A DNA stretch of 43,678 bases from Candidatus Gygaella obscura (GTDB lineage: Bacteria; Omnitrophota; Gorgyraeia; Gygaellales; Gygaellaceae): positions 1 through 43,678 of the forward strand of contig JAVCCR010000012.1 of assembly GCA_030765485.1 (NCBI GenBank). Reading direction: 5' to 3'. The notes beneath the pieces were generated by a model. It saw nothing but the letters and a program-made list of their open reading frames with translations, was not told the origin of the DNA and did not search any database. Positions 13,918 through 43,678 of the stretch are shown piece after piece (position 1 is the stretch's first letter; each line of letters begins with the position of its first letter). Position numbers and translations under genes: made by a program.

Positions 13918-16026
13918 TTACTTTTTCCTTCTTAAAAGCATTTTTATCCTTGCCAACAACTTATCTTTATCAAATGGCTTAGTGATATAATCATCAGCAC
14001 CTACGTCTATTCCCTTGATTTCACTATCCTTATCTTGACGAGCAGTAAGCATAATAATTGGGATAGAGGCGGTTTCCAGACTTGTCTTTAAGGCATTAAT
14101 TGCCTCATATCCATTAAGTTTTGGCATGGTCACATCGGTTATAATTAAATCTGGTTTTTTGTTATACGCCAACTCGACCAATTCTTCACCGTCTCTGGAA
14201 AGAATGATATAGTACCCAGCAGCCTCTAAGCGTTTTTTAACCAACATTAATAAATCTTCTTCGTCATCTGAAACAAGGATTTTTAGCTTTTCTCCGGTTT
14301 CCACGGACTTTTGAATGACTTTATCTTTTTCGGCTACGCCAATTATTTTTGCCACATCCTCAATACAAACAATCCCCTCTTTTACTTTTTTCATCGCCGA
14401 TAAAGTAAGTGAATTTGATCCTGCATTTTGCGCTTCGTTTAAAATTACATGTTCGGGGCTCTTTGCCGTTATCAAGTCTTTCAACTTATCATTAATCTTT
14501 AGGATTTCAAAAGCTGCGGTTCTGCCAAAATACCCGGAATAACCACATTTCTTGCATCCTTTTGCACGGTAAAATTTATCAATCTTAAGATTATCGATAT
14601 ATTTCTTAAAATCCTCTAAAAGTTTTCCATTCGGTTTATACTCCTCTTTACATTCCGGACAGATAAGTTTTACCAAACGCTGTGCCACAACAAGAATTAA
14701 AGAAGAAGCCACTAAATACGCCTCTAAGCCTATATCGAAAAGCCTGGTAATTGAACTTACAGCGTTGTTGGTATGTAGGGTTGAAAAAACCAAATGTCCC
14801 GTCAGGGACGACCTAAAAGCAATCTCAGCTGTATCTTTATCTCTTATTTCTCCTACTAAGATTACATTGGGATCCTGACGTAAAAGACTTCTTAATCCAT
14901 TTGCAAAAGTAACATCTTTTGCAGGATTAACCTGCATCTGATTAACGCCTTCGATCAAATACTCTATAGGGTCTTCTATGGTAACGATATTTTTATTCTC
15001 TGCCTTAATTGAATTAAGCGTTGCGTAAAGGGTGCTGGTTTTACCAGAGCCTGTTGGTCCGGTTATAAGAATAATACCCTGCGGACTTGCGATCGCTTCT
15101 TTGTAAAGTTTTATTTCGTTTTCATCAAAACCAATTCTTGAAAGTTCAATCTTTGCCTCTTCAGGATCAAGTACTCTTATCTCAAGTTTTTCGCCATGGA
15201 ATGTAGGTATAGTTGATATTCTAAGGTCGATTCTTTTACCGTTAAGAGATATCTTTGCCCTCCCATCCTGAGGTTTCCTAGTTTCAGTAATATCAAGACC
15301 GGATAAAACCTTGATTCGACTAATTAAAGCCGGATGGACGCTACCGGGAACATCCATAATATTTCTTAAATCTCCGTCAATTCTATAACGTACTTTGCTA
15401 ATTTTTTCTTGCGCTTCAATATGTATATCGCTTGCTCTTTTTTTAACCGCATCGTTAATTATAAGACTTGTTAATTTAACCGTGGGAGATGTATGATTTT
15501 GTTTTTCATGCCTGTTAACAGAAACCAATTCTTCGTTTTCATCCTTTATAAGTTCAATCTTAACATCATCCTTAAAATTCTTCAAAATATCATAAAGAGA
15601 GTCATCAAAGTTGTAGCTTTTTTCGATAAACTCGTTAACTTGTGATTTTTTACACAGAATAGCTTTAAGATTCTGTTTGGTAATTGCCCTTATGTCATCT
15701 AAAACCACCACATTTTGCACGTCACTTGTAGCAATAAGCACATGGTCGGAGTCTTTTCTTAAAGCAAAAACTCCGTACCGCTTTGCCAATTCGTAAGGAA
15801 TCAGCTTTAAAACATTCACATCTAACTTCTCTTTTTCTAAATCAACTACGGGTTGATTAAACATGCGGGAAGATATCTTTAGTAAGTCATCTTCATTAAC
15901 AAAACCCATATCAATAAGTAAATCCTGAATAGGCTTTTGTGCACCCTTTTGTTTAATTTTAGCATCTTCAAATTGCTCTTTAGTAATCAAACCTTCTTTT
16001 ATCAAGGAGTCCGTTAACAATGACAT
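13918..16026 (-). CDS. PilB/GspE-type secretion/pilus assembly ATPase with C-terminal receiver domain
   Basis: N-terminal MshEN-like region; Walker A GPTGSGKTSTLY; Asp box VTIEDPIEYLIEGVNQMQVN; Walker B LRQDPNVILVGEIRD; CPEC...CKKCGYSGYFGRTAAFEIL zinc motif; C-terminal ILVSDDEEDLL...LIITDVTMPKLNG...MLTAR...KPFDKDKL. Confidence 0.95.
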   Translation of the reverse strand: MSLLTDSLIKEGLITKEQFEDAKIKQKGAQKPIQDLLIDMGFVNEDDLLKISSRMFNQPVVDLEKEKLDVNVLKLIPYELAKRYGVFALRKDSDHVLIATSDVQNVVVLDDIRAITKQNLKAILCKKSQVNEFIEKSYNFDDSLYDILKNFKDDVKIELIKDENEELVSVNRHEKQNHTSPTVKLTSLIINDAVKKRASDIHIEAQEKISKVRYRIDGDLRNIMDVPGSVHPALISRIKVLSGLDITETRKPQDGRAKISLNGKRIDLRISTIPTFHGEKLEIRVLDPEEAKIELSRIGFDENEIKLYKEAIASPQGIILITGPTGSGKTSTLYATLNSIKAENKNIVTIEDPIEYLIEGVNQMQVNPAKDVTFANGLRSLLRQDPNVILVGEIRDKDTAEIAFRSSLTGHLVFSTLHTNNAVSSITRLFDIGLEAYLVASSLILVVAQRLVKLICPECKEEYKPNGKLLEDFKKYIDNLKIDKFYRAKGCKKCGYSGYFGRTAAFEILKINDKLKDLITAKSPEHVILNEAQNAGSNSLTLSAMKKVKEGIVCIEDVAKIIGVAEKDKVIQKSVETGEKLKILVSDDEEDLLMLVKKRLEAAGYYIILSRDGEELVELAYNKKPDLIITDVTMPKLNGYEAINALKTSLETASIPIIMLTARQDKDSEIKGIDVGADDYITKPFDKDKLLARIKMLLRRKK

Positions 16027-16468: not shown

Positions 16469-17089
16469 TCAATGACTTCTGACAATTTCTTTAACTCTCA
16501 TAAGCCTAACAAGATTACCACGTTCAATCTCATTCAGTTTTTGGCTTATATTTCTAATTGTTGCTTCTATAGAAGGAATCAAGGTGTATTCTAACGCATT
16601 GACTCGCCTACGAGTACGCTCTATCTCAATTGAAAGTATCTCAAGTGTTTTTAGACTTGAGGCCAGCTTACATAGTATAGCGATATAATCTTTTGCATGA
16701 TCCATAGCAACGTCCAATTGCGCACTAGCTTTAAAATAATCGTATTTTTTCTCTATTCCAATCTTTACAACATTAAAAACAGGCACCTTAACATTCATTA
16801 TCCGCTGCGATGATATATCTAAGTTGATTTCGGATTCTATCCTAGAAAGACTTTCCAAAAAAACATCTTTTGCAGAAGTTATTCGGCAATAAATAAGACT
16901 ATCATATATAATCTTTGTCTTTTTCTGGAATTCATCATTTATTGAATTAAAATCCTTGATAAGTACCAAAAAGCGACGCATCATTTCCTCAAGCTTACCC
17001 TGTAAAAGCTTGTGTCCTCTTTTGGCAAGACCAAGCCTCTTCTTAAGACGCAATAACTCCATTCTGTTAGGATTAACTCTTAGGATCAT
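16469..17089 (-). CDS. atpD: V/A-type ATPase subunit D
   Basis: [35 protein letters not shown] and [33 protein letters not shown]. Confidence 0.95.
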
Positions 17090-18456
17090 TTCGAATAATA
17101 TTTATCCAGATATTCTTCCCGGATTCGCTTTAATTCCTGTTTGGGCAATTTATTAAGCAGGCTCCAGCCAATAGAAAGCGAATCTTCTATCGTACGATTC
17201 TCATATTCAGACTGCCTGACAAAGTTTTCTTCAAAATCATTGGCAAATTGTAAATATATCTTATCGATTTCAGAAAGCGCTGCTTCTCCAAGGATAACTG
17301 CCAATTCTCTTGCCTCTTTCCCCTTGGCATAACAGGCAAATAGCTGATTTAACACATCCGAGTGATCTTCTCTAGTCTTTTCTTTACCAATTCCTTTATC
17401 CTTCAACCTAGAAAGACTAGGTAAAACATCTACCGGTGGATAAATTCCTTTTCTGTGTAGTTCGCGCGATAGAATAATCTGACCCTCTGTAATATAGCCG
17501 GTCAAATCAGGGATAGGATGGGTTTTATCATCTTCAGGCATAGTCAAAACAGGTAAAAGCGTAATCGAACCCTTTTTGCCCTTTACCCGGCCTGCTCTCT
17601 CATATAGCGAAGCAAGATCTGTATATAAATAACCAGGGTATCCGCGCCTTCCAGGGATTTCTTTTCTGGCAGCAGAAACCTCCCTTAAGGATTCGCAGTA
17701 AAAAGACATATCTATTAAGATAACTAAAACATGCATATCTAAATCAAATGCAAAATATTCAGCGCATGTCAAAGCAAGTCTAGGGGTAGAAATCCTTTCA
17801 ATCGCCGGATCATTGGCAAGATTTATAAAAAGCGTGCTGCGTTCTATTGCGCCGGTTTTATAAAAATCCTTCATAAAAAAGTCGGCCTCTTCAAAAGTAA
17901 TCCCCATTGCGGCAAATACTACAGCAAATGATTCCTTTTTACCTAATACTGCAGCCTGCCTTGCAATTTGAGCGCTTACCTTAGCATGAGGTAATCCCGC
18001 ACCTGAAAAAACAGGAAGCTTTTGTCCACGTACCAAAGGGTTCATACAGTCTATCGTGGATATTCCAGTTTGGATAAATTCCGATGGGTAATCTCTTGTA
18101 TAAGGATTAATCGGATTACCATTAATATCCAGTCTTTTCTCTGGTATTATCTGCGGACCATTATCTTTTGCTCTTCCTGCGCCATCAAAAATCCTTCCCA
18201 GTAAATCCTTAGATACTCCCAATTCCTGAACGCGGCCCAAGAATCTTACTTTTGAACTTTCAACATCTAAACCAATAGTACCTTCAAACATCTGCACTAA
18301 AGCCCTATCTTCCTGAACTTCTAAAACCTTACCCCTTCTTATCTCTTTGTTGGAAAATTCCACTTCCACAAGCTCAGAATATTTTACATCCTTGGTTTTT
18401 TCAACAATAACTAAAGGCCCGGATATAGAATTAATTGTTAAATATTCTTTCTGCAT
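17086..18456 (-). CDS. atpB: V/A-type ATPase subunit B
   Basis: [80 protein letters not shown]-type region. Confidence 0.96.
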
Positions 18457-18462
18457 AAAAAA

Positions 18463-20217
18463 TTACTCCTCGCTTTTTTCAAACTCATTTTTTAATTCCT
18501 GTTCAAACTTATCAAAATCGCTAATCTTATTTTCCTCGATATATTTTAACCTACTGATTTTTTCTCTTATTTTAAAATTTGTGATTTTTTCTAAATCCAT
18601 ACCTTTATTCAGCGCATCCTTTGCAAAAACAAAAAACTGCATAATGATTTTTAAAATACGGTGCTGTTTAACTAAAGAAGTATAGGTATCTATTTCATGG
18701 AATGCATTCTGATGTAGGAAATCTTCTCTTATTGACTTTGCCACTTCCAATACAAGCCTATCTTCAAAAGATAAAGAATCCAAACCTACCAAGCGGGCAA
18801 TCTCTAAAAGAGAACTTTCTTTTTCCAATAAACGCATAGCCTCAATTCTTAAATCAACCTGATCCTGAGAAATATTCTTTTTAATAAATTCATTTAAATT
18901 ATCATGATAAAGAGAGTAACTCTCCAACCAATTTATTGCAGGAAAATGCCGTGCGTGCGCCAACTTTTCATCCAGACCCCAGAAAACCTTAACAACTCTC
19001 AAGGTTGCCTGAACTACCGGATCAGACAAATCCCCTCCCGGAGGAGATACTGCACCCATAATGCTTAAAGTCCCTTTACGTTTATCTGAACCTAAACATT
19101 CCACCACGCCTGCTCTTTCATAAAACTGCGCTAGGCGGCTGGATAAATAAGCCGGATACCCTTCTTCTCCAGGCATCTCTTCAAGACGACCAGATATTTC
19201 ACGCAAGGCCTCTGCCCAACGAGAAGTAGAATCAGCCATTATGGCAACATTATAACCCATGTCTCTGAAGTATTCGGCAATGGTTATGCCTGTATAAATT
19301 GATGCCTCTCGGGCAGCAACCGGCATATTAGATGTATTGGCAATAACTACAGTGCGCTCCAATAACGGTCTTCCAGTACGCGGATCTTTAAGCTGAGGAA
19401 AACTAAGCAATAAATCCGCACATTCATTACCTCTTTCACCACAGGCTATATAAACAATAATATCAGCATCAGACCACTTGGCTATCTCATGCATAGTAAC
19501 AGTTTTACCAGCTCCAAAAGGACCAGGAATGCAAGCTGTACCTCCTTTTGTCATAGGAAAAAATGTATCGATTACACGCTGACCGGTGGTAAGCGGTACA
19601 TCAGGCGAAAACTTTTTACTAAAAGGTCTGGGGTTTCGAACAGGCCATACCTGAGCCATGCTTATTTCTTCTTTTTTATTTTTTGTGCTTATTAAAACTA
19701 CCTTTTCCTTAATGTTAAAATCTCCCTCCGCTATCTCAATAATCTCACCCTCTAAAAACACAGGAACCATAATCTTATGCTTAATCAAGGCGGTTTCATC
19801 CACCTCTCCTAAGATGTCTCCAGGATAGACATGATCACCTTTTTTAGCAATAGGCCGGAAATGCCATTTTTTCTCATAATCTAAAGCACTAATCTTAACT
19901 CCACGGGGAATAAAATCCCCATATTTTAAGCTGATCTTGTCTAAAGGTCTTTGTACTCCATCATAGATAGACCCTAAAAGCCCAGGGCCTAATTCTACAG
20001 TCAAAGGACTATTAACAAGCTCCACATTTTCTCCCGGGCCAATACCAGTTGTCTCTTCATAAACCTGTATATAGGCCTTATCTGATTTTAACTCGATTAT
20101 CTCTCCTGCCAGGCCTTTATCAGAAACCCTTACCAAATCATACATTTTTGCACCTCTACAACCAGAGGCAACAACTAAAGGCCCTGCTACTTTAATAATC
20201 TTTGGTTTCTTGTTCAT
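18463..20217 (-). CDS. atpA: V/A-type ATPase catalytic subunit A
   Basis: P-loop [73 protein letters not shown]. Confidence 0.97.
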
Positions 20218-20246
20218 CTAATACTCCTATTGCTGATTAAAATTTA

Positions 20247-20567
20247 CTAAATCTTACCAATTGCTTTTAACCTAATGTTTTTAATAATTTCCCCTATTGA
20301 ATCCTTAGACTCCTTGTTGGAAAAGGGGATAAAAATCGGGAATTCTTTTTCTTTGTAATCCAAAAACGCTTCTTTATTTTTTATAAAGAAAACTTCTTCA
20401 ACAAGACAAATCTTTGTCTCAGAAGCAACAATTTTCTTTACATTATCGCTGATATCATCGTTTTCTTCAACAATATAAACAGTAAAACCTATAGCCTTGA
20501 AACCAACTACCCTGTCTTCCCTGCCCAAAACAGCAAAATTTTCTTGCGTCAAATTATTTTCAGACAT
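20247..20567 (-). CDS. atpF: V/A-type ATPase subunit F
   Basis: 106 aa; AVLGREDRVVGFKAIGFTVYIVE; correct size and position between C and A. Confidence 0.85.
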   Translation of the reverse strand: MSENNLTQENFAVLGREDRVVGFKAIGFTVYIVEENDDISDNVKKIVASETKICLVEEVFFIKNKEAFLDYKEKEFPIFIPFSNKESKDSIGEIIKNIRLKAIGKI

Positions 20568-21363
20568 ATGTACTATTTAACCTCTTATATAAAAGATTAG
20601 TTTCTACGCTGTTTATCTTGCCCAAAACAATTAATCTAACCATATTAATTTCATTAACTCTGGCGAAAAAATATGCAATCACTGCCTCCGGACCAAAACT
20701 GATATATTTAGCAGGTCTTAAAATATCAATAAGAAATCCTGCTATGGATCTTTCTAATTCAATAAAAGATTTATTTTTTTCTATCTCTTTTACAGCCTCT
20801 TTTAAAAATAACGAGTAATTTATAATAGAATTTTTCTTATGCACAAACTCTAGCCTAGCCAGAAAAAAAGATAGTTCCTTTTCGTATAAAGCAAAAAAAT
20901 CTTTCCTATCTATGAATCCAGTTTCGCTAATTAAACTGCGCAACTCTTCTAAGGGTCTTTTAAAAATAAAACTTCTTAGGAAAGTTTTGATGTTATGCAT
21001 ATCAATCAGATGCAAAATATAATCCTGTAAAAATTCGCTCTTGATGCTAATAACTTTTTCCTTTGCCTTGCTTAAATTATCTAAATCAACGAGGCAAATA
21101 AAACTCTTATCGGGTAAAAGCTGATTAACAATTTTTCTTAAAGACTCTTTTTCTTTGGATAAAACCAATTCTAAGTCAGCGGAATTTTCGACGCCAATAA
21201 GATCTTCGCTAAAAATACCCGGCTCAACAAAAAGATGCAATGCCTCTTCCAGGTTTAAGTTCAAAGCCTCCTTAAAGGCTTCTTCAGTTATAAGGGATTT
21301 TTCTAATGCCCTTATTTTCCCAACACCATAGGCATAATCATATACAGAGGGTGCGTTATTCAC
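20560..21363 (-). CDS. atpC: V/A-type ATPase subunit C (AC39-like), GTG start
   Basis: YAYGVGKIRALEKSLITEEAF, helical subunit, C-terminal AYFFARVNEINMVRLIVLGKIN. Confidence 0.85.
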   Translation of the reverse strand: MNNAPSVYDYAYGVGKIRALEKSLITEEAFKEALNLNLEEALHLFVEPGIFSEDLIGVENSADLELVLSKEKESLRKIVNQLLPDKSFICLVDLDNLSKAKEKVISIKSEFLQDYILHLIDMHNIKTFLRSFIFKRPLEELRSLISETGFIDRKDFFALYEKELSFFLARLEFVHKKNSIINYSLFLKEAVKEIEKNKSFIELERSIAGFLIDILRPAKYISFGPEAVIAYFFARVNEINMVRLIVLGKINSVETNLLYKRLNSTYV

Positions 21364-21517
21364 TTTTTCTAAGTAGACTAATCACTTTGTCCAATTTCTC
21401 TGAGATCTCCCTTAAAAGCGTAATCTGCTCTCTTTGAATTCCTTCCTGCTGCTTCTGCATGTTTTTGGCCTCATTTGCCAATTTAGACATATCCGACAAC
21501 TTCGAAAAATCAAGCAT
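21356..21517 (-). CDS. Small 53-aa coiled-coil ORF inside the V-ATPase operon (absent from supplied ORF track)
   Basis: Minus-strand translation MLDFSKLSDMSKLANEAKNMQKQQEGIQREQITLLREISEKLDKVISLLRKSE*. AAGGAG lies 5 nt before the ATG at the end of subunit E; the 3' end overlaps the subunit C GTG start. Confidence 0.75.
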   Translation of the reverse strand: MLDFSKLSDMSKLANEAKNMQKQQEGIQREQITLLREISEKLDKVISLLRKSE

Positions 21518-21519
21518 CC

Positions 21520-21942
21520 TTACTCCTTATTTTCAACAAATAAAACTTTTAAAATCTGTGGTTCCAATTCAAATCTTACCCTTTTTAAAAATACTGCCGT
21601 ATCTTCATGTGTATCTAATTCTCTATCAACCAAAACCTGTTTCTTCTTAAAAGCTGTTTTCTTTAACGCCGACTCTAATTCAAAAAACAACACATCAATC
21701 AATTCCTGCTTGCGCTTCAATAATCTTTTTTTCCCTTCAATTGTTTCATTTACAATTACACGTCTTTTTTCAACACTAATACTTTCTTTTTCTTGCGCAA
21801 GAAGTCTTTTGTAAAAATTGTCTCGCTCTTGCCAGGCCTGCTTAATAATAAGCCGCTCTTGTTTTTTTGCCTGTTCTAAGATTGTTGATCTTTCTTTATC
21901 AGTATTAGATTTTATATAATCAATTATGTTTTCTAAAGGCAT
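21520..21942 (-). CDS. atpE: V/A-type ATPase subunit E (short form)
   Basis: Long charged N-terminal helix; C-terminal FLKRVRFELEPQILKVLF resembles subunit E C-termini; 140 aa; position K-E-C. Confidence 0.8.
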   Translation of the reverse strand: MPLENIIDYIKSNTDKERSTILEQAKKQERLIIKQAWQERDNFYKRLLAQEKESISVEKRRVIVNETIEGKKRLLKRKQELIDVLFFELESALKKTAFKKKQVLVDRELDTHEDTAVFLKRVRFELEPQILKVLFVENKE

Positions 21943-21946
21943 CGCT

Positions 21947-24410
<2,464 letters not shown>

Positions 24411-37632: not shown

Positions 37633-37701
37633 TAAGGGGTATCTAATTTTTGTGGAGGGCCCCTTTTTGGCTGATAAACCGAAAGGCATAGACACCCCTT
37701 A
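37633..37701. repeat. Imperfect inverted repeat at the 3' end of the giant gene
   Basis: TAAGGGGTATCTA ... TAGACACCCCTTA, 13-bp arms with one mismatch (G-U in RNA), about 43 bp interior containing GGGCCC; includes the giant gene stop codon. Confidence 0.7.
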
Positions 37702-40700
37702 AATCTCTGGCTTCTTGGCACTAAACTCTATATTTTTCAATTGGTTACGTAATTCACTTACCGAGTGTACCGAATCCACAATCTTAAGAAGCTCTTTTGT
37801 CTGTATGTCTGTTACAACTACCTTTTCCTCCTCAAGCCTTAAAATAGAAACCAACAAATTAAAAACTTTGTCCAAAACATCTTCTAAATTATCCTCATCA
37901 AAGTTAGTATCGATATGTACTTTTATGCTTTCAGCTGAAGGTATGATTTTCTTATTAATTAAAGAGTACATTTCCATCAGAAATTTATCCTGTGGATCCT
38001 TACTAAACCTTTCACTTACAGATCTGCCCTGCAGTGTTAAAGAAGAAATATTTCTAAAATCAATACCACCGGGGCCAGAGGAATCTGAATTATGCTTTTC
38101 TAAAAATTCTTTCACCCCCTTAGATATTCTTTTAGCAGGCGCATCTAATTTATTAAGACGGCTTGTATCAATGCGGTCTCTCAAAGTCTGCAAAAGATAA
38201 TTTTTTACTACTTTTTCATCGGTAAATAACCTTAAATTGTCTAAAACTACCTTGGTGTTCTCGATGCTTAGCCCGGATAATGATTCTTCTAGAATACCTT
38301 TTATATGTATTTGGCTTATTCCGTAATAATAAAGCGTCTCTAAGAAAAATTTACTTAAAGAATCTACCGTTGTCATACCTAAATCAACCACAACAAACCT
38401 TCCGGTTCCCTTCTCAATCATAATATTATTCCAATGAACATCATGTGGGCAGATTCCTTCGCTTAGATAAATACCGTTATTTAAGACAGCATAAATATTG
38501 AATATAATATTACTAGCCTGTACGGAGAATGCCGAAGATAAGGTTTCATCTTTATTAAACTGGGTTAATATTTGGTATTTGTCATTAACGCTTAGCAATG
38601 TTTCCATAAGCTCGATAAGTCGGGATGTCTGAATTTTTGAAAAACCCTTGTTTTGAATAAGCGACCTTATTCGTTCAATATTGCTGCTATATTCAGAACT
38701 GCCTTTTTCTGTTTTTAGCAAATTGGCTACTGCCTCACCTATCTTTTTTGTGCTTAAAAACTGCTCATTAAAAAATGACACCTCGGCTAGCGTAAAGCCA
38801 TCAATAAACTCTTCTACCACCCTTGTTTCAAAACTGCCTTCTTCGGGTAAGGTGTCTGAATATTCAAACCCTGATTCAGTTTCTTTTAAATAATAAACCT
38901 TGCCCAACTTTGGAACAAGACCTGTCTTTTGTAAAGCTCTTTGTCCGGCCTCTTCTCCTTCTTCAAACAAACGACCTTCTTTAACCGGAACTTTCTTAGC
39001 AATAAGAAATGATTTGGTTTCTCCGGCAACGGTAAAAATATTAACCTTCAAAACATGCTTATTGCTTCCTGATGCCTCGTATGAAATCACAATCCTTTCT
39101 ACATCCTCAAGGCTAAATCCGAAGTTAAGATTATTAATCGTATCCTGTATAACCTCAGGATGATTTTTAAGCATAAACTCCTGGACAGATTTTTCTCGCT
39201 CAAGGATTGCTCTAATTTCATCATCTATTAATCTTTCACCATAGCCATAATCTGCATCTTGGCTTGAATCAACCTCAACGGAAATATCGCTTTTAAAGCT
39301 AAGTGTAAACTCTTCGGAAAGTTCTTCTATCTGGGGTATGCTTTGAGCTACTCTTTCATAGCTGATAGCCAAAGGCTGAGCACTTCTTACACCGGAAAGA
39401 ATTTTTTCTTTACTTACTCTTAACTTACCAGGAATTTCATCCAAATCAAAAGCAACAACAAAAACATATAGCTTCCCGTCTTCTAATCTTCTTACCGCAA
39501 GCCCCATATTCTCGTCAGTTGCCTCAATTGTGTTATCAGCAATCAAAGGATTACTATCTTTTGCCTGTTCGAACAAATCAATCAGCTCTTCATCCTGCGC
39601 TTTTTCTGCAATCGTATTTGCTTCATGAAGAGGTAAAACGCGTTCTGAAATATCTAAGGGCACTCCCGCAATATCCTTTATCCTGACAACCAGTTTATCA
39701 TTGTTGATAAGGGCTGCCGAATCAGCTTCGCTTATGCCTTCGGTTTTATTTTTCATCGCTAGAATAGGCAGAGTATTATAACCCCTAATAACAAACCCGT
39801 TAACCAAAAATGCAATCTTGCCGCCGCCTTCTTCTGATAATAATATTACATCTTCGTCTTTAACGCCCAGGGTATCTATTATCATTGAACGCAACTGCTC
39901 TTGTGTTAACACAATGGATCCTTTTACGATTAAATCTAATGTGCCTCTTAAGTTATCCAGAAATTCTTTCTGGGGAACATTTTCTATTCCCTGTTCTATA
40001 TCCGGCATATAACGAGTTGCAAGCCAGGCAAAACTATCATCTTCACCAGGTAAATCTGCCTGTTCAACTAGATCATTGGCTTTTTGCCTTAATGTTTGTT
40101 TTTCGGCGATTTCTTTGTTGGAATCCCGTATAACAACCTCTCCATACTCTCTTGCTCTCTCCATAAAATCAATGAACTTGTCCAGCTCATATTCCTTTAT
40201 TAAGCTATCAAATTTATTTCTTACTTCTTCGCCATAAAGACTTGTTGCCAGCTCAATCGCCTCATCAAGCCTTGCTTTATACTCCTCGTACCCGTAAAGA
40301 GCATTGTAAGCATTATAAAGACTATACCCGCTCAAACCTTTATTAACTAACTCACGTGCTTCCTGAATAAAATTATCATATGTACTGCGCAGAACCTGGT
40401 CTGTTTTTGCATCAGGAGTTAGCCCTTCTGTTATAGCTAAGAATCTTACAGCCCTTATGAGTCTGCGCATATTCTTGGGATCGTCGAATTCGGTTAAAGT
40501 AAGCTCTTTGCTTTCTAGAGCAGTAAGAGCATTGTTTAAAGGATCTACCAACTCGGCACTATTTTTGACACTATAAAAAATAACAGCTTTGTTTATCGTG
40601 AAATCGCCCATGGAAATAAAATTATCGAGCTTCCTGTCGTGACCAACATCATCAATTGCAAGTCCGGTTTGCACTTCTAAATAATCTTTAATCCTTTTCC

Positions 40701-43678
40701 TGTAATATTCATCGGCTGGTAAAATCATATCCAAGTCGGATAAATGCCCGCCATACCAAAGGCTCCTTACAAAACCACCAGCAAAGCCGACACTGCGCAT
40801 AATCACATCTATTTTTTTATATTCTTCTTGTATGCGGCTATTGCTCTGAGTTTCTGTTAAAGTACTGTCGTCTGCGATTGAATTGCCCGCTTCTTCTCTT
40901 AAAATTTCATGTAAACCTACTAGCGCTGTCCACACCTGAAGATGTTTGCCCTGAAGAAGCTTTTCTCCAACACCTTGTACTCTTAAGATGTTTTCTTTTG
41001 CCTCTGGCTGCTCAACAACAGCCTCTGGTTTTTCTATTTGCTCAGGCCAATTACCATCCTTATCCTGAATAACAACAAAATCCTGAATACCCTGTTTTTC
41101 TAATGCCTTAAGCTGAGAAACGCCATCATCAAGACTAACTATAGCCTTGGCAAAAGCCAGATTATTGAAGTTTTTGTCATTTCGCGCTTCGAATCCTCTT
41201 TTGAATTCAGCAAAAGAACGTGTAGCACAAATTCTTATATCAATGCCCGCATTCTTTAACACCTCTGCCTTTACCTTATATAAAACCTCTTCCAAATTAT
41301 CAAATAAATTATCTTCAAAAACTAAAGTAAATTCATCCCCTCCCATCAATTCCGTTAAAGCATCTTCAGAAATCCCCAATTCTTTAATGATTGTTTCGCG
41401 AGCTATCCTCATTGTTTCAATAAGGCTTACAGTAACTGTATCTGCTGCTGAAATCCATAAATCCTCTAATGAAGCAATTTGTCCTAATTGTATAGCTGAA
41501 GAAATCTTCTGCAGCTCTATCTCGTTTGCATTTATATTCATAATTCCCATTTTCTTTATATCTAAGGTAACAAAAATGGGGTTTTCCATCGGTGGACCTC
41601 TGGAATAAAAAGCAAACTCAGAATCAAATTCCGGCAGTTTTGCTTCAGTCTCAATAAATAATTTCGCCTGGACAATCAAACCAGCAAGTCCTTCGTCTAT
41701 CGGCATTAGATATTCTTCTTCTGTTTGATTAAGCTTTTGATTAAGCCTATCTGATAACGCAGTTATCCTCTCAGAGCGATCTCTTGCCTCTTCAAAATCA
41801 ATCTGCCATTTCTTTATATAATCCTGTATCTTGATAAGCTTAAAATATCTCTGGGCGATATTGAAATTTTCTTCGTTTATAAACTGTTCTCTTGCTTCAG
41901 ACGATAAGTTCTGCCAATCTAAATTATCTCTAAGCGAAGTTGCTACTTCTTGGGATAAAAATAAATTCCCTTCTTCATCCGCATCAAATATAGCTGACTG
42001 CTCGTTCAGTAAACTGCGCAGGCTATCGATTTCTGATATTACTTTGCTGTAATCTGCTTCGGAAAAATTATAATTCGCTCCGGAAATATTTTCTCCTATA
42101 ACAATTGCCTGATGGGCACTAATATCTGCCAGAAGTTTCTCTTGCATAGAATCTCCGCCAATCTGGCCAATGCCAAAACTCAAAGCATAAAGAGGCTTGT
42201 TTAATTCTTGGATTTTAACTCCGTTGGCTTTCAATACGATTCTAAATTCAAGCTGACCTCTTAAGATCTCTCCAATTCTTTTAATCAGCTCTCGTTGTAT
42301 TTCCTGCAATACTACTGTATCTAATACAACATCTTTCCCAACCAAAAATACATCTTCCTTATATGTGCTGTATATCAAACCATCATCTTTAATAAGGCCT
42401 TTTGCTTTCATCAGCCCCAAAAGCAGTTGTCTTCTGATGCCGATAAGCCTTGTGTTAAGTTCGTATCCAAGCTTGTCATTCAAATCCTTTATACCAAAAC
42501 CTTCTCTGGCAATGCCAGGAACTTGAAAAACCACTACCCTATCTCCTGCTTTGCCCTTATTTGAAATCTGGCCCAAAGAATTCTGTGTTTGAAGATAATC
42601 AATAAGTCTTTTTATATCGCTACTAAACAAGGCTTCATCTTTTTTTGCGTCTATTACCAACAAAGCCCTATTCCAAATGCTTCTTAAAAAATCTGCGGTA
42701 TCTGTCCATTTTAATATGCGTTCATATTTTTCTCTTTCATCAGAATGATATCTTCTACCTTCATCTATAGCATCGGGGCCAATCGGCTTTTCTTCTTGCT
42801 CCTCCTTTAATAAAATATTCGTATCTTGATCGACGTCTCTCGGTATTTCTGTGACAATGGAAGTAATGCTGGCACCTGTATCGGCATCAACAATGGTTTC
42901 ACCCGGAGCTGGCATAGAAGAAACCATAGGTAAAATTCCGCCACTAAAATATACCCTTACTTTATTAAAACGCTTTTTATCAGCAACTTTTATTTCATAC
43001 TCACCTTCCTGGAATGATTTTCTATACGCATCAAAATAACTTTCTGTTGACCATTTATCTTTCGATACTAACCCTTCAAGCTTGTTTTTGTTTATAAGCT
43101 TCCTGTAACGCCCGGATGAGCTCTTAAAGCGCTCCTTGAACCACTTGGCCATAACCAAAGAGTAAAACGCCTGACGAAGCATAGCGTATCTTTTGGCAGT
43201 ATTAACTTCCTTTATAAGACGCGGGATAACAGTTTCATTTAAAAGAACACTTGCATATTCATTAAGTCGTTTTGCTCTTTCATCCTTAAAACTAAACTTT
43301 TGAGAAGTTGACATATGATCTTCTTCCAGCATTACATTAAGCAATGCCTTAAAAATATAAATATCGCTATTGGTTTCCCGCAATATTATCTCACCCGGAA
43401 CAATCCATGGGCGCGCAAGAGTAGGAATGCTTATATTAAAAGTACCAAAAATTTCTTTTGCTTTTTCCTGAAGTTTTTGCCAATAAAGCTGACCCTCTTT
43501 TGTCAGCGGAGAAGTAAAACGGGCAGTATCTTTTTTAAGCTGCAGATCGGCCTCAAGAAAAATTCTGCCCATATCTGTTTTGGCAAGATTTTTATCGATT
43601 ATCTCATCTGCAGAATCAGGACGCAGATTAACCCAAAATGATTCGTCAGGAAGGGTAAGCCCAATGAGAAAGAATTTA
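37699..43678 (-). CDS. Giant multidomain protein, partial (5' end beyond window): GGDEF-like + poly(A) polymerase/CCA-type nucleotidyltransferase-like + APH-like kinase modules
   Basis: The 1957-aa ORF continues in frame past the listed Met to the window edge: KFFLIGLTLPDESFWVNLRPDSADEIIDKNLAKTD-MGRIFLEADLQLKK. Motifs MGGDEFTLVFED, GGFVRSLWYGGHLSDLDMILP, DFTINKAVIF, RRLIRAVRF, PHDVHWNNIMIE...FVVVDLG. Confidence 0.88.
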   Translation of the reverse strand, partial: KFFLIGLTLPDESFWVNLRPDSADEIIDKNLAKTDMGRIFLEADLQLKKDTARFTSPLTKEGQLYWQKLQEKAKEIFGTFNISIPTLARPWIVPGEIILRETNSDIYIFKALLNVMLEEDHMSTSQKFSFKDERAKRLNEYASVLLNETVIPRLIKEVNTAKRYAMLRQAFYSLVMAKWFKERFKSSSGRYRKLINKNKLEGLVSKDKWSTESYFDAYRKSFQEGEYEIKVADKKRFNKVRVYFSGGILPMVSSMPAPGETIVDADTGASITSIVTEIPRDVDQDTNILLKEEQEEKPIGPDAIDEGRRYHSDEREKYERILKWTDTADFLRSIWNRALLVIDAKKDEALFSSDIKRLIDYLQTQNSLGQISNKGKAGDRVVVFQVPGIAREGFGIKDLNDKLGYELNTRLIGIRRQLLLGLMKAKGLIKDDGLIYSTYKEDVFLVGKDVVLDTVVLQEIQRELIKRIGEILRGQLEFRIVLKANGVKIQELNKPLYALSFGIGQIGGDSMQEKLLADISAHQAIVIGENISGANYNFSEADYSKVISEIDSLRSLLNEQSAIFDADEEGNLFLSQEVATSLRDNLDWQNLSSEAREQFINEENFNIAQRYFKLIKIQDYIKKWQIDFEEARDRSERITALSDRLNQKLNQTEEEYLMPIDEGLAGLIVQAKLFIETEAKLPEFDSEFAFYSRGPPMENPIFVTLDIKKMGIMNINANEIELQKISSAIQLGQIASLEDLWISAADTVTVSLIETMRIARETIIKELGISEDALTELMGGDEFTLVFEDNLFDNLEEVLYKVKAEVLKNAGIDIRICATRSFAEFKRGFEARNDKNFNNLAFAKAIVSLDDGVSQLKALEKQGIQDFVVIQDKDGNWPEQIEKPEAVVEQPEAKENILRVQGVGEKLLQGKHLQVWTALVGLHEILREEAGNSIADDSTLTETQSNSRIQEEYKKIDVIMRSVGFAGGFVRSLWYGGHLSDLDMILPADEYYRKRIKDYLEVQTGLAIDDVGHDRKLDNFISMGDFTINKAVIFYSVKNSAELVDPLNNALTALESKELTLTEFDDPKNMRRLIRAVRFLAITEGLTPDAKTDQVLRSTYDNFIQEARELVNKGLSGYSLYNAYNALYGYEEYKARLDEAIELATSLYGEEVRNKFDSLIKEYELDKFIDFMERAREYGEVVIRDSNKEIAEKQTLRQKANDLVEQADLPGEDDSFAWLATRYMPDIEQGIENVPQKEFLDNLRGTLDLIVKGSIVLTQEQLRSMIIDTLGVKDEDVILLSEEGGGKIAFLVNGFVIRGYNTLPILAMKNKTEGISEADSAALINNDKLVVRIKDIAGVPLDISERVLPLHEANTIAEKAQDEELIDLFEQAKDSNPLIADNTIEATDENMGLAVRRLEDGKLYVFVVAFDLDEIPGKLRVSKEKILSGVRSAQPLAISYERVAQSIPQIEELSEEFTLSFKSDISVEVDSSQDADYGYGERLIDDEIRAILEREKSVQEFMLKNHPEVIQDTINNLNFGFSLEDVERIVISYEASGSNKHVLKVNIFTVAGETKSFLIAKKVPVKEGRLFEEGEEAGQRALQKTGLVPKLGKVYYLKETESGFEYSDTLPEEGSFETRVVEEFIDGFTLAEVSFFNEQFLSTKKIGEAVANLLKTEKGSSEYSSNIERIRSLIQNKGFSKIQTSRLIELMETLLSVNDKYQILTQFNKDETLSSAFSVQASNIIFNIYAVLNNGIYLSEGICPHDVHWNNIMIEKGTGRFVVVDLGMTTVDSLSKFFLETLYYYGISQIHIKGILEESLSGLSIENTKVVLDNLRLFTDEKVVKNYLLQTLRDRIDTSRLNKLDAPAKRISKGVKEFLEKHNSDSSGPGGIDFRNISSLTLQGRSVSERFSKDPQDKFLMEMYSLINKKIIPSAESIKVHIDTNFDEDNLEDVLDKVFNLLVSILRLEEEKVVVTDIQTKELLKIVDSVHSVSELRNQLKNIEFSAKKPEI

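What the first reader, a model, noticed from the sequence alone, without database searches (positions are those of the whole stretch)
37699..43678. Giant protein combining GGDEF-like, CCA/poly(A)-polymerase-like and kinase-like modules
Seen: one continuous frame of at least 1990 codons carries three separate enzyme-like motif sets that are not normally fused, namely a nucleotidyl-cyclase-like GGDEF, a class II nucleotidyltransferase head, and an aminoglycoside-phosphotransferase-type catalytic loop plus metal-binding motif. Long segments (about residues 1-650 and 1150-1490) match nothing I recognise. Inference: a large modular effector or regulatory protein, possibly a lineage-specific giant protein of Omnitrophota-type bacteria. 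I know of no described system with this architecture.
Basis: partly seen in the sequence, partly recalled or inferred. Interest (0 to 1): 0.85.

Follow-up and report, generated by a model that had tools for sequence, protein, structure and literature searches.

The report
Exported modular giant protein, swappable enzymes
This Omnitrophota gene encodes a 2,083-residue protein with a predicted export signal, in which fixed first and last segments shared by many relatives bracket a changeable set of enzyme-like modules; other members of the same family carry glycolysis enzymes, which nobody appears to have described.

Summary
The frame is real. The gene runs past the window's end: 2,083 aa, with an N-terminal signal peptide as its only strongly hydrophobic segment. 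All three modules are supported by profile comparison: GGDEF-like (weakest), CCA/poly(A)-polymerase-type nucleotidyltransferase, and protein-kinase-like. Their key residues are conserved. None passes a Pfam cut-off, and AlphaFold on the payload was uninformative.

Residues 1-345 (signal plus about 315-aa "head") occur in 142 of 392 Omnitrophota genomes sampled, within one class, sometimes in many copies. The last ~125 aa ("tail") end 47 of 57 complete head proteins sampled. Between them lies a variable payload of 138-3,074 aa. Head and tail match no Pfam, NCBIfam, PDB or viral-fold entry convincingly.

A syntenic ortholog in the same genus keeps head, GGDEF, kinase and tail (59-72% identity) but has a different cassette in place of the nucleotidyltransferase. 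Other members carry GAPDH, TIM, PGK, iPGM, FBPase or aldolase, several with intact active-site residues, in genomes that also keep separate housekeeping pgk/tpiA.

Best reading: an exported "bookend" protein carrying exchangeable enzymes. Anatomy is well supported, export is inferred, and function at a cell-cell interface is conjecture.

The parts
42916..43678 (-). Head, C-terminal part (protein residues 92-345; the whole head is residues 1-345, contig 42916-43950, beyond the window; residues 1-26 are the signal peptide MIKFIKKALAVFVCILFVFEQVGFAQ)
   Evidence: 29-sequence alignment, 50% mean column identity, invariant FWVNLR, LQLKKD-like, RPWI, SGG etc.; found in 142/392 phylum genomes; AF2 pLDDT >90 for most of the core, no PDB or BFVD fold match
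40921..42774 (-). GGDEF-containing module (residues 393-1010); palm part with metal/guanine-site-like residues at 40996-41598
   Evidence: 7 homologs share D, N, AAD.VT and GGDE invariantly; hhalign to GGDEF 42%, above 20 shuffles; profile finds diguanylate cyclases in PDB, E 0.018
40351..40833 (-). CCA/poly(A)-polymerase-type nucleotidyltransferase domain (residues 1040-1200), motifs GGFVRS..SDLD, DFTIN, DDP..RLIRAVRF
   Evidence: hhalign 96.3% over 157 columns with CCA enzymes of own genome and relatives; PDB profile hits mostly CCA/PAP, E 0.1
39304..40887 (-). Exchangeable cassette (residues ~1022-1549): nucleotidyltransferase plus following segment; replaced by an unrelated ~660-aa segment in the syntenic ortholog L065
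   Evidence: BLAST of P0001 vs L065 aligns 1-1017 and 1550-2083 only; synteny of flanking genes
39253..39822 (-). Segment 'm2' (residues 1377-1566), unknown function, 37% identical to part of a 19,780-aa ORF in another family
38311..39288 (-). Protein-kinase-like module (residues 1555-1880) with FLIAKK, EEF hinge, HDVHWNN, VVDLG
   Evidence: invariant K, D.H..N, VD.G in 4 homologs; profile finds protein kinases in PDB, best E 0.0092; Pfam best is ABC1 kinase, only E 0.12
37702..38088 (-). Tail (residues 1955-2083), constant C-terminal helical segment starting near GGIDFR
   Evidence: tail HMM in 47/57 complete head ORFs, at the extreme C-terminus; 61/392 phylum genomes
37699..37701 (-). Stop codon

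Best explanation
The gene encodes one member of a family of modular exported 'bookend' proteins of one Omnitrophota class. Shown by sequence: (1) a constant signal peptide and ~315-aa head of unmatched fold at the N-terminus; (2) a constant ~125-aa helical tail at the C-terminus; (3) a variable payload between them that changes by exchange of whole cassettes; (4) here the payload is a GGDEF-like module, a CCA/poly(A)-polymerase-type nucleotidyltransferase and a protein-kinase-like module, all with their key residues. Inferred: the signal peptide sends the whole chain through the Sec pathway; head and tail are the constant handling parts (sorting, anchoring or assembly at the surface or in the periplasm), like handles on a tool with exchangeable bits; the payload enzymes are divergent extra copies of cytoplasmic-type enzymes, used outside the cytoplasm. 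Conjecture: because these modules should need NTPs, they act where NTPs are available outside the cell, most simply at or in a partner, host or prey cell.
For: Full gene, signal peptide and no other segment as hydrophobic. Head in 44/59 close relatives and 142/392 phylum genomes. Tail at the extreme C-terminus in 47/57 complete head ORFs; in 5 of the other 10 it sits in a neighbouring downstream ORF. Head and tail co-occur across genomes (59 of 61 tail genomes have a head; Fisher p 7e-28, uncorrected for relatedness). Payloads are mosaic. Cassette swap between syntenic orthologs with rsmI, glmS, pyrR, pyrB and pyrC conserved; pN/pS 0.24-0.34 in the shared parts. Payload modules are plausible enzymes: TIM in L125 keeps its Lys/His/Glu, GAPDH in L123 its Cys/His. 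Genomes also have separate housekeeping pgk and tpiA. The same GGDEF module sits behind a plain signal-like N-terminus without head in G253. The swapped-in cassette of L065 contains a Tat-signal-like stretch above the NCBIfam cut-off, as if taken from another exported protein.
Against: Export is inferred from the N-terminus only; no SignalP-class tool and no proteomics were available. NTP-dependent enzymes have no obvious substrate outside the cytoplasm. No ATP/ADP translocase was found, but the control did not ring either. The payload fold prediction failed (mean pLDDT 38.5), so no module fold is confirmed structurally. The GGDEF assignment is the weakest. No partner gene or secretion machinery was tied to the family.
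Confidence: 0.6

Rival explanations
1. An ordinary cytoplasmic, membrane-tethered multi-enzyme regulatory protein: the N-terminal hydrophobic stretch is an uncleaved anchor and the payload works inside.
For: GGDEF, nucleotidyltransferase and kinase chemistry needs cytoplasmic NTPs; catalytic-type residues are conserved.
Against: The N-region is net positive in all 107 heads examined (mean +3.5), which by the positive-inside rule puts the rest outside, and a signal-peptidase-like GFAQ follows. The same module sits behind a plain signal-like N-terminus in G253. A Tat-signal-like stretch lies inside the swapped cassette of L065.
Confidence: 0.2
2. A structural or adhesive giant protein in which the enzyme-like domains are catalytically dead scaffolds, or recently captured genes drifting to decay.
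For: The three modules are highly diverged and below Pfam cut-offs; published Omnitrophota giant ORFs are read mainly as adhesins or surface proteins (PMC10066038). Some family genes are split.
Against: Active-site-type residues are invariant among diverged homologs; TIM Lys/His/Glu and GAPDH Cys/His are intact in relatives; pN/pS 0.24-0.34 between orthologs.
Confidence: 0.15
3. Assembly chimera or frame artefact: separate genes joined by mis-assembly.
For: Draft MAG; giant ORFs are error-prone.
Against: Same head, GGDEF module, kinase and tail in the same order, in the same syntenic place, in an independent MAG (L065); head plus tail on single ORFs in dozens of independent MAGs.
Confidence: 0.02

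Closest known systems
Giant ORFs (>20 kb) of Omnitrophota (Seymour et al. 2023, PMC10066038)
   Same: Same phylum; very long proteins with few annotated domains, proposed to act at the cell surface or in symbiosis or predation.
   Different: This family is mostly 350-5,600 aa, has a strongly conserved head and tail, no multiple transmembrane helices in this member, and an enzyme payload rather than adhesion domains. In the passages read, that paper calls its giant ORFs poorly conserved and mentions no bookends.
Polymorphic toxin-type proteins (constant N-terminal delivery part, variable payload); from general knowledge
   Same: Works alike in layout: constant exported carrier with exchangeable payload modules.
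   Different: A constant tail closes the protein, so the payload is not C-terminal; no immunity gene beside it (neighbours are rsmI and pyrR); payloads resemble metabolic and nucleotide enzymes, not toxins.
GGDEF diguanylate cyclases (PF00990)
   Same: Metal Asp, Asn at +8, AAD.VT and GGDE in order.
   Different: Below Pfam detection; embedded in a ~600-aa module of its own; behind a signal peptide.
CCA-adding enzymes / poly(A) polymerase head (PF01743)
   Same: GG.VR...DLD, DFTIN and DP..RL.RA.RF motifs, collinear.
   Different: RR of RRDFT lost; no recognisable body and tail domains for tRNA binding; the genome has two ordinary PF01743 genes elsewhere.
Protein-kinase-like fold (APH, ABC1, protein kinases)
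   Same: Lys of the N-lobe, EEF hinge, D.H..N catalytic loop, VDLG.
   Different: Long insertion between hinge and catalytic loop; no Pfam family matched significantly.

Membership tests
Head-tail ('bookend') family defined here | Signal peptide plus ~315-aa head | tested here: met
   Residues 1-345; head HMM E 3.5e-162 in own genome
Head-tail ('bookend') family defined here | GGIDFR-type tail at extreme C-terminus | tested here: met
   Residues 1955-2083, tail HMM E 1.1e-28
GGDEF diguanylate cyclase | GG(D/E)EF motif with metal Asp and guanine-site Asn/Asp | tested here: met
   D, N, AAD, GGDE invariant in 7 homologs
GGDEF diguanylate cyclase | Match to PF00990 above gathering score | tested here: not met
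   No PF00990 match at E <= 5; not listed among own-genome PF00990 hits
GGDEF diguanylate cyclase | Makes c-di-GMP | not testable with these tools
   Needs enzyme assay
CCA-adding enzyme / poly(A) polymerase | Class II nucleotidyltransferase head with motif A (GG..R..DxD) | tested here: met
   GGFVRS..SDLD; hhalign 96.3%
CCA-adding enzyme / poly(A) polymerase | RRDFT and EDxxR nucleotide-selection motifs | tested here: inconclusive
   MGDFTIN without RR; DDPKNMRRLIRAVRF is shifted
CCA-adding enzyme / poly(A) polymerase | PF01743 above cut-off | tested here: not met
Protein-kinase-like fold | N-lobe Lys, D.H..N catalytic loop, D.G metal site | tested here: met
   Invariant in 4 homologs
Protein-kinase-like fold | Significant match to a kinase family model | tested here: inconclusive
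   ABC1 E 0.12; PDB profile best kinase E 0.0092
Polymorphic toxin system | C-terminal variable toxin with adjacent immunity gene | tested here: not met
   C-terminus is the constant tail; neighbours rsmI and pyrR
Giant ORF >20 kb of Omnitrophota | Length above 20 kb | tested here: not met
   6.25 kb

The most novel reading that the evidence does not exclude
A class-wide Omnitrophota export platform: a head of new fold and a C-terminal tail carry interchangeable, catalytically active copies of core metabolic and nucleotide enzymes (including a GAPDH-TIM-PGK-iPGM chain in one polypeptide) out of the cytoplasm, giving these cells metabolism at or inside a partner cell or in an extracytoplasmic compartment.
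Probability: 0.3. Interest if true: 0.93.

Novelty: new variant of a known kind. Interest (0 to 1): 0.77.

Why it matters
Giant proteins of Omnitrophota are known but have been hard to interpret because most looked poorly conserved. A constant head and tail make a large set of them recognisable as one family and give a handle for annotation, localisation and structure work. If the signal peptide works, Omnitrophota place second copies of glycolytic and nucleotide-processing enzymes outside the cytoplasm, which I know of no metabolic model of these uncultured bacteria including. The syntenic cassette swap shows payload exchange directly.

Tried and rejected
AlphaFold of residues 772-1948 gave mean pLDDT 38.5 with only four alignment rows: uninformative, so neither support nor refutation of the three folds. 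Adding L080/L126 rows was dropped because MAFFT placed them on the wrong module.

Foldseek of the L087 model gave no match at E <= 0.001 in PDB or BFVD.

Pfam on the window ORF, head and tail gave nothing convincing. PPR-like hits of the tail (AEP1 3.7e-4 in 6 members; designed PPR 1.5e-7 with no single stretch passing) are noted as a possible helical-hairpin resemblance, not homology.

The ATP/ADP translocase search (PF03219) was uninterpretable because no control genome rang.

Literature searches for Omnitrophota giant proteins with glycolytic enzymes or a conserved N-terminus found none. Preprints, including work on giant genes of predatory bacteria that I know of only from memory, are not held.

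A first GGDEF profile was polluted by a wrong-frame sequence and was rebuilt.

Assembly chimera was rejected on synteny and recurrence.

Full report
CHECK OF THE OBSERVATION. The frame at 37699-43677 (minus strand) is open for 1,992 codons. The window is the first part of a 138,789-bp contig. Direct Pfam, NCBIfam and PDB searches of the window part give nothing significant.

THE THREE MODULES. Homologs were collected from Omnitrophota genomes and aligned.

GGDEF-like: seven diverged homologs over ~600 aa share D (LDIK), N at +8, AAD.VT and GGDE without exception. Profile-profile comparison with the lineage's own GGDEF domains gives 42% probability, score 32.7 against a maximum of 18.4 in 20 column-shuffled controls. 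Searched against PDB, the profile's best hits are diguanylate cyclases at a weak E of 0.018.

Nucleotidyltransferase: two homologs share GG.VR..L..G....D.D. hhalign against CCA enzymes of the own genome and relatives gives 96.3% over 157 collinear columns, covering GG.VR..DLD, DFTIN and DP..RL.RA.RF. PDB hits are mostly CCA/poly(A) polymerases (E 0.1). The genome has two ordinary PF01743 genes elsewhere.

Kinase-like: four homologs keep the N-lobe Lys, EEF, D.H..N and VD.G; PDB hits are nearly all protein kinases.

None reaches a curated family cut-off, so the modules resemble these folds but are not shown to be members of the enzyme families. AlphaFold of residues 772-1948 was uninformative for lack of alignment depth.

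THE FAMILY. Searching with the whole protein showed that residues 1-340 recur in 44 of 59 close relatives, several copies per genome, on ORFs of about 300-5,600 aa with different continuations. The 29-sequence head alignment has 50% mean column identity with many invariant polar residues. A scan of named genomes found 278 relatives; the best 80 (79 loci) come from MAGs named Candidatus Omnitrophota, a few labelled only "bacterium" and one labelled Thermodesulfovibrionia. In 392 phylum genomes the head is present in 142, all within the window's class, with up to 79 candidate sites per genome in a first, unscored look; the window's own genome has one.

The last ~125 aa also recur. A tail profile hits 47 of 57 complete head ORFs, at the extreme C-terminus; in five of the other ten loci the tail lies in a downstream ORF. 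The tail is found in 61 of 392 genomes, 59 of them head-positive. In families outside the window's order most heads lack this tail. Neither head nor tail matches Pfam, NCBIfam or PDB sequence convincingly.

AlphaFold of the smallest complete member with both (L087, 609 aa) gives a confident head (pLDDT above 90 for most of residues 50-310), a fairly confident helical tail and a disordered middle. Foldseek finds no match in PDB or BFVD at E <= 0.001. The head may be a new fold; tests against predicted cellular structures were not possible.

THE PAYLOAD. Middles run from 138 to 3,074 aa and share pieces as a mosaic. Pfam finds PGK, TIM, GAPDH, iPGM, FBPase, class II aldolase, phosphoglucomutase, GNAT, HD, metallophosphatase, glycosyltransferase, methyltransferase, MutS, NUDIX, TPR and HEAT among 49 middles. 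One 3,113-aa protein (L123) carries GAPDH, TIM, PGK and iPGM in one chain; L125 carries FBPase and TIM; L085 PGK and aldolase. By eye, the TIM of L125 keeps NWKM, GHSE and YEPVWAIGTG, and the GAPDH of L123 keeps its Cys and His. Near-complete genomes also have a separate pgk-tpiA pair of normal size, so these are additional copies.

CASSETTE SWAP. The nearest relative (L065, same gene order rsmI-giant-pyrR-pyrB-pyrC with glmS nearby) has the same head, GGDEF module, kinase module and tail (59-72% identity), but residues ~1022-1549 are replaced by an unrelated ~660-aa segment, 36% identical to part of another head protein (L086). That segment contains a Tat-signal-like stretch above the NCBIfam cut-off, as expected if it came from another exported protein. 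pN/pS in the shared parts is 0.24-0.34 (pS is near saturation, so the ratio is approximate), indicating purifying selection.

HOW IT MOST LIKELY WORKS. Shown: constant signal peptide and head, constant tail, variable enzyme-like payload, cassette exchange. Inferred: Sec export (net positive N-region in all 107 heads, hydrophobic core, GFAQ), with head and tail as the handling parts. Also in favour of export, one GGDEF-module relative (G253) lacks the head yet begins with a plain signal-like N-terminus. Conjecture: use of the payload at or in a partner cell, since these enzymes should need NTPs. Omnitrophota have been proposed to be symbionts, parasites or predators, and their giant ORFs surface proteins (PMC10066038; PMC12057145).

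NOVELTY. Giant and modular proteins of Omnitrophota are a known kind. A family united by head and tail with enzyme payloads was not found in the literature available. I therefore rate it a new variant of a known kind, with the stronger reading given as the novel case.

Noticed in passing
L123:632-9970 (+): 3,113-aa head-tail protein with GAPDH, TIM, PGK and iPGM; the iPGM parts are in circularly permuted order (metalloenzyme half first, then the RDGWG/DSEVGH and iPGM_N half).
   Followed up: partly
G036:C6, G007:C2, G016:C33, G236:C20 (whole-genome handles): Ultra-giant ORFs with housekeeping-type domains: 54,392 aa with two TIM domains, 42,913 aa with GGDEF, 18,421 aa with PGK, 19,780 aa sharing segment m2 with this protein.
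   Followed up: no
L065, residues 991-1019 of the protein read from L065:10004-16657 (+): Tat-signal-like RRSFLRTLGLGTLALAGAAF in the middle of a 2,224-aa protein, at the start of the swapped-in cassette.
   Followed up: partly
L003:9620-17725 (contig C10, upstream of the gene, outside the window): By eye, a cluster of nitrogenase-like (NifH-like plus two NifD/E-like) proteins and several radical SAM/SPASM-type proteins, syntenic in L065; not checked with family models.
   Followed up: no
window 13918-16026 (-): T2SSE/PilB-type ATPase fused to a C-terminal response-regulator receiver domain, next to PAS and histidine-kinase genes.
   Followed up: no
window 17086-24410 (-): V/A-type ATPase operon.
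   Followed up: no
L092, L108, L111, L130, L141: Head ORF followed by a separate downstream ORF carrying the tail: split genes, frameshifts or assembly errors.
   Followed up: no
A11 (tail alignment): Tail shows weak resemblance to a PPR-type helical hairpin (AEP1 E 3.7e-4 in 6 members; designed PPR protein).
   Followed up: partly
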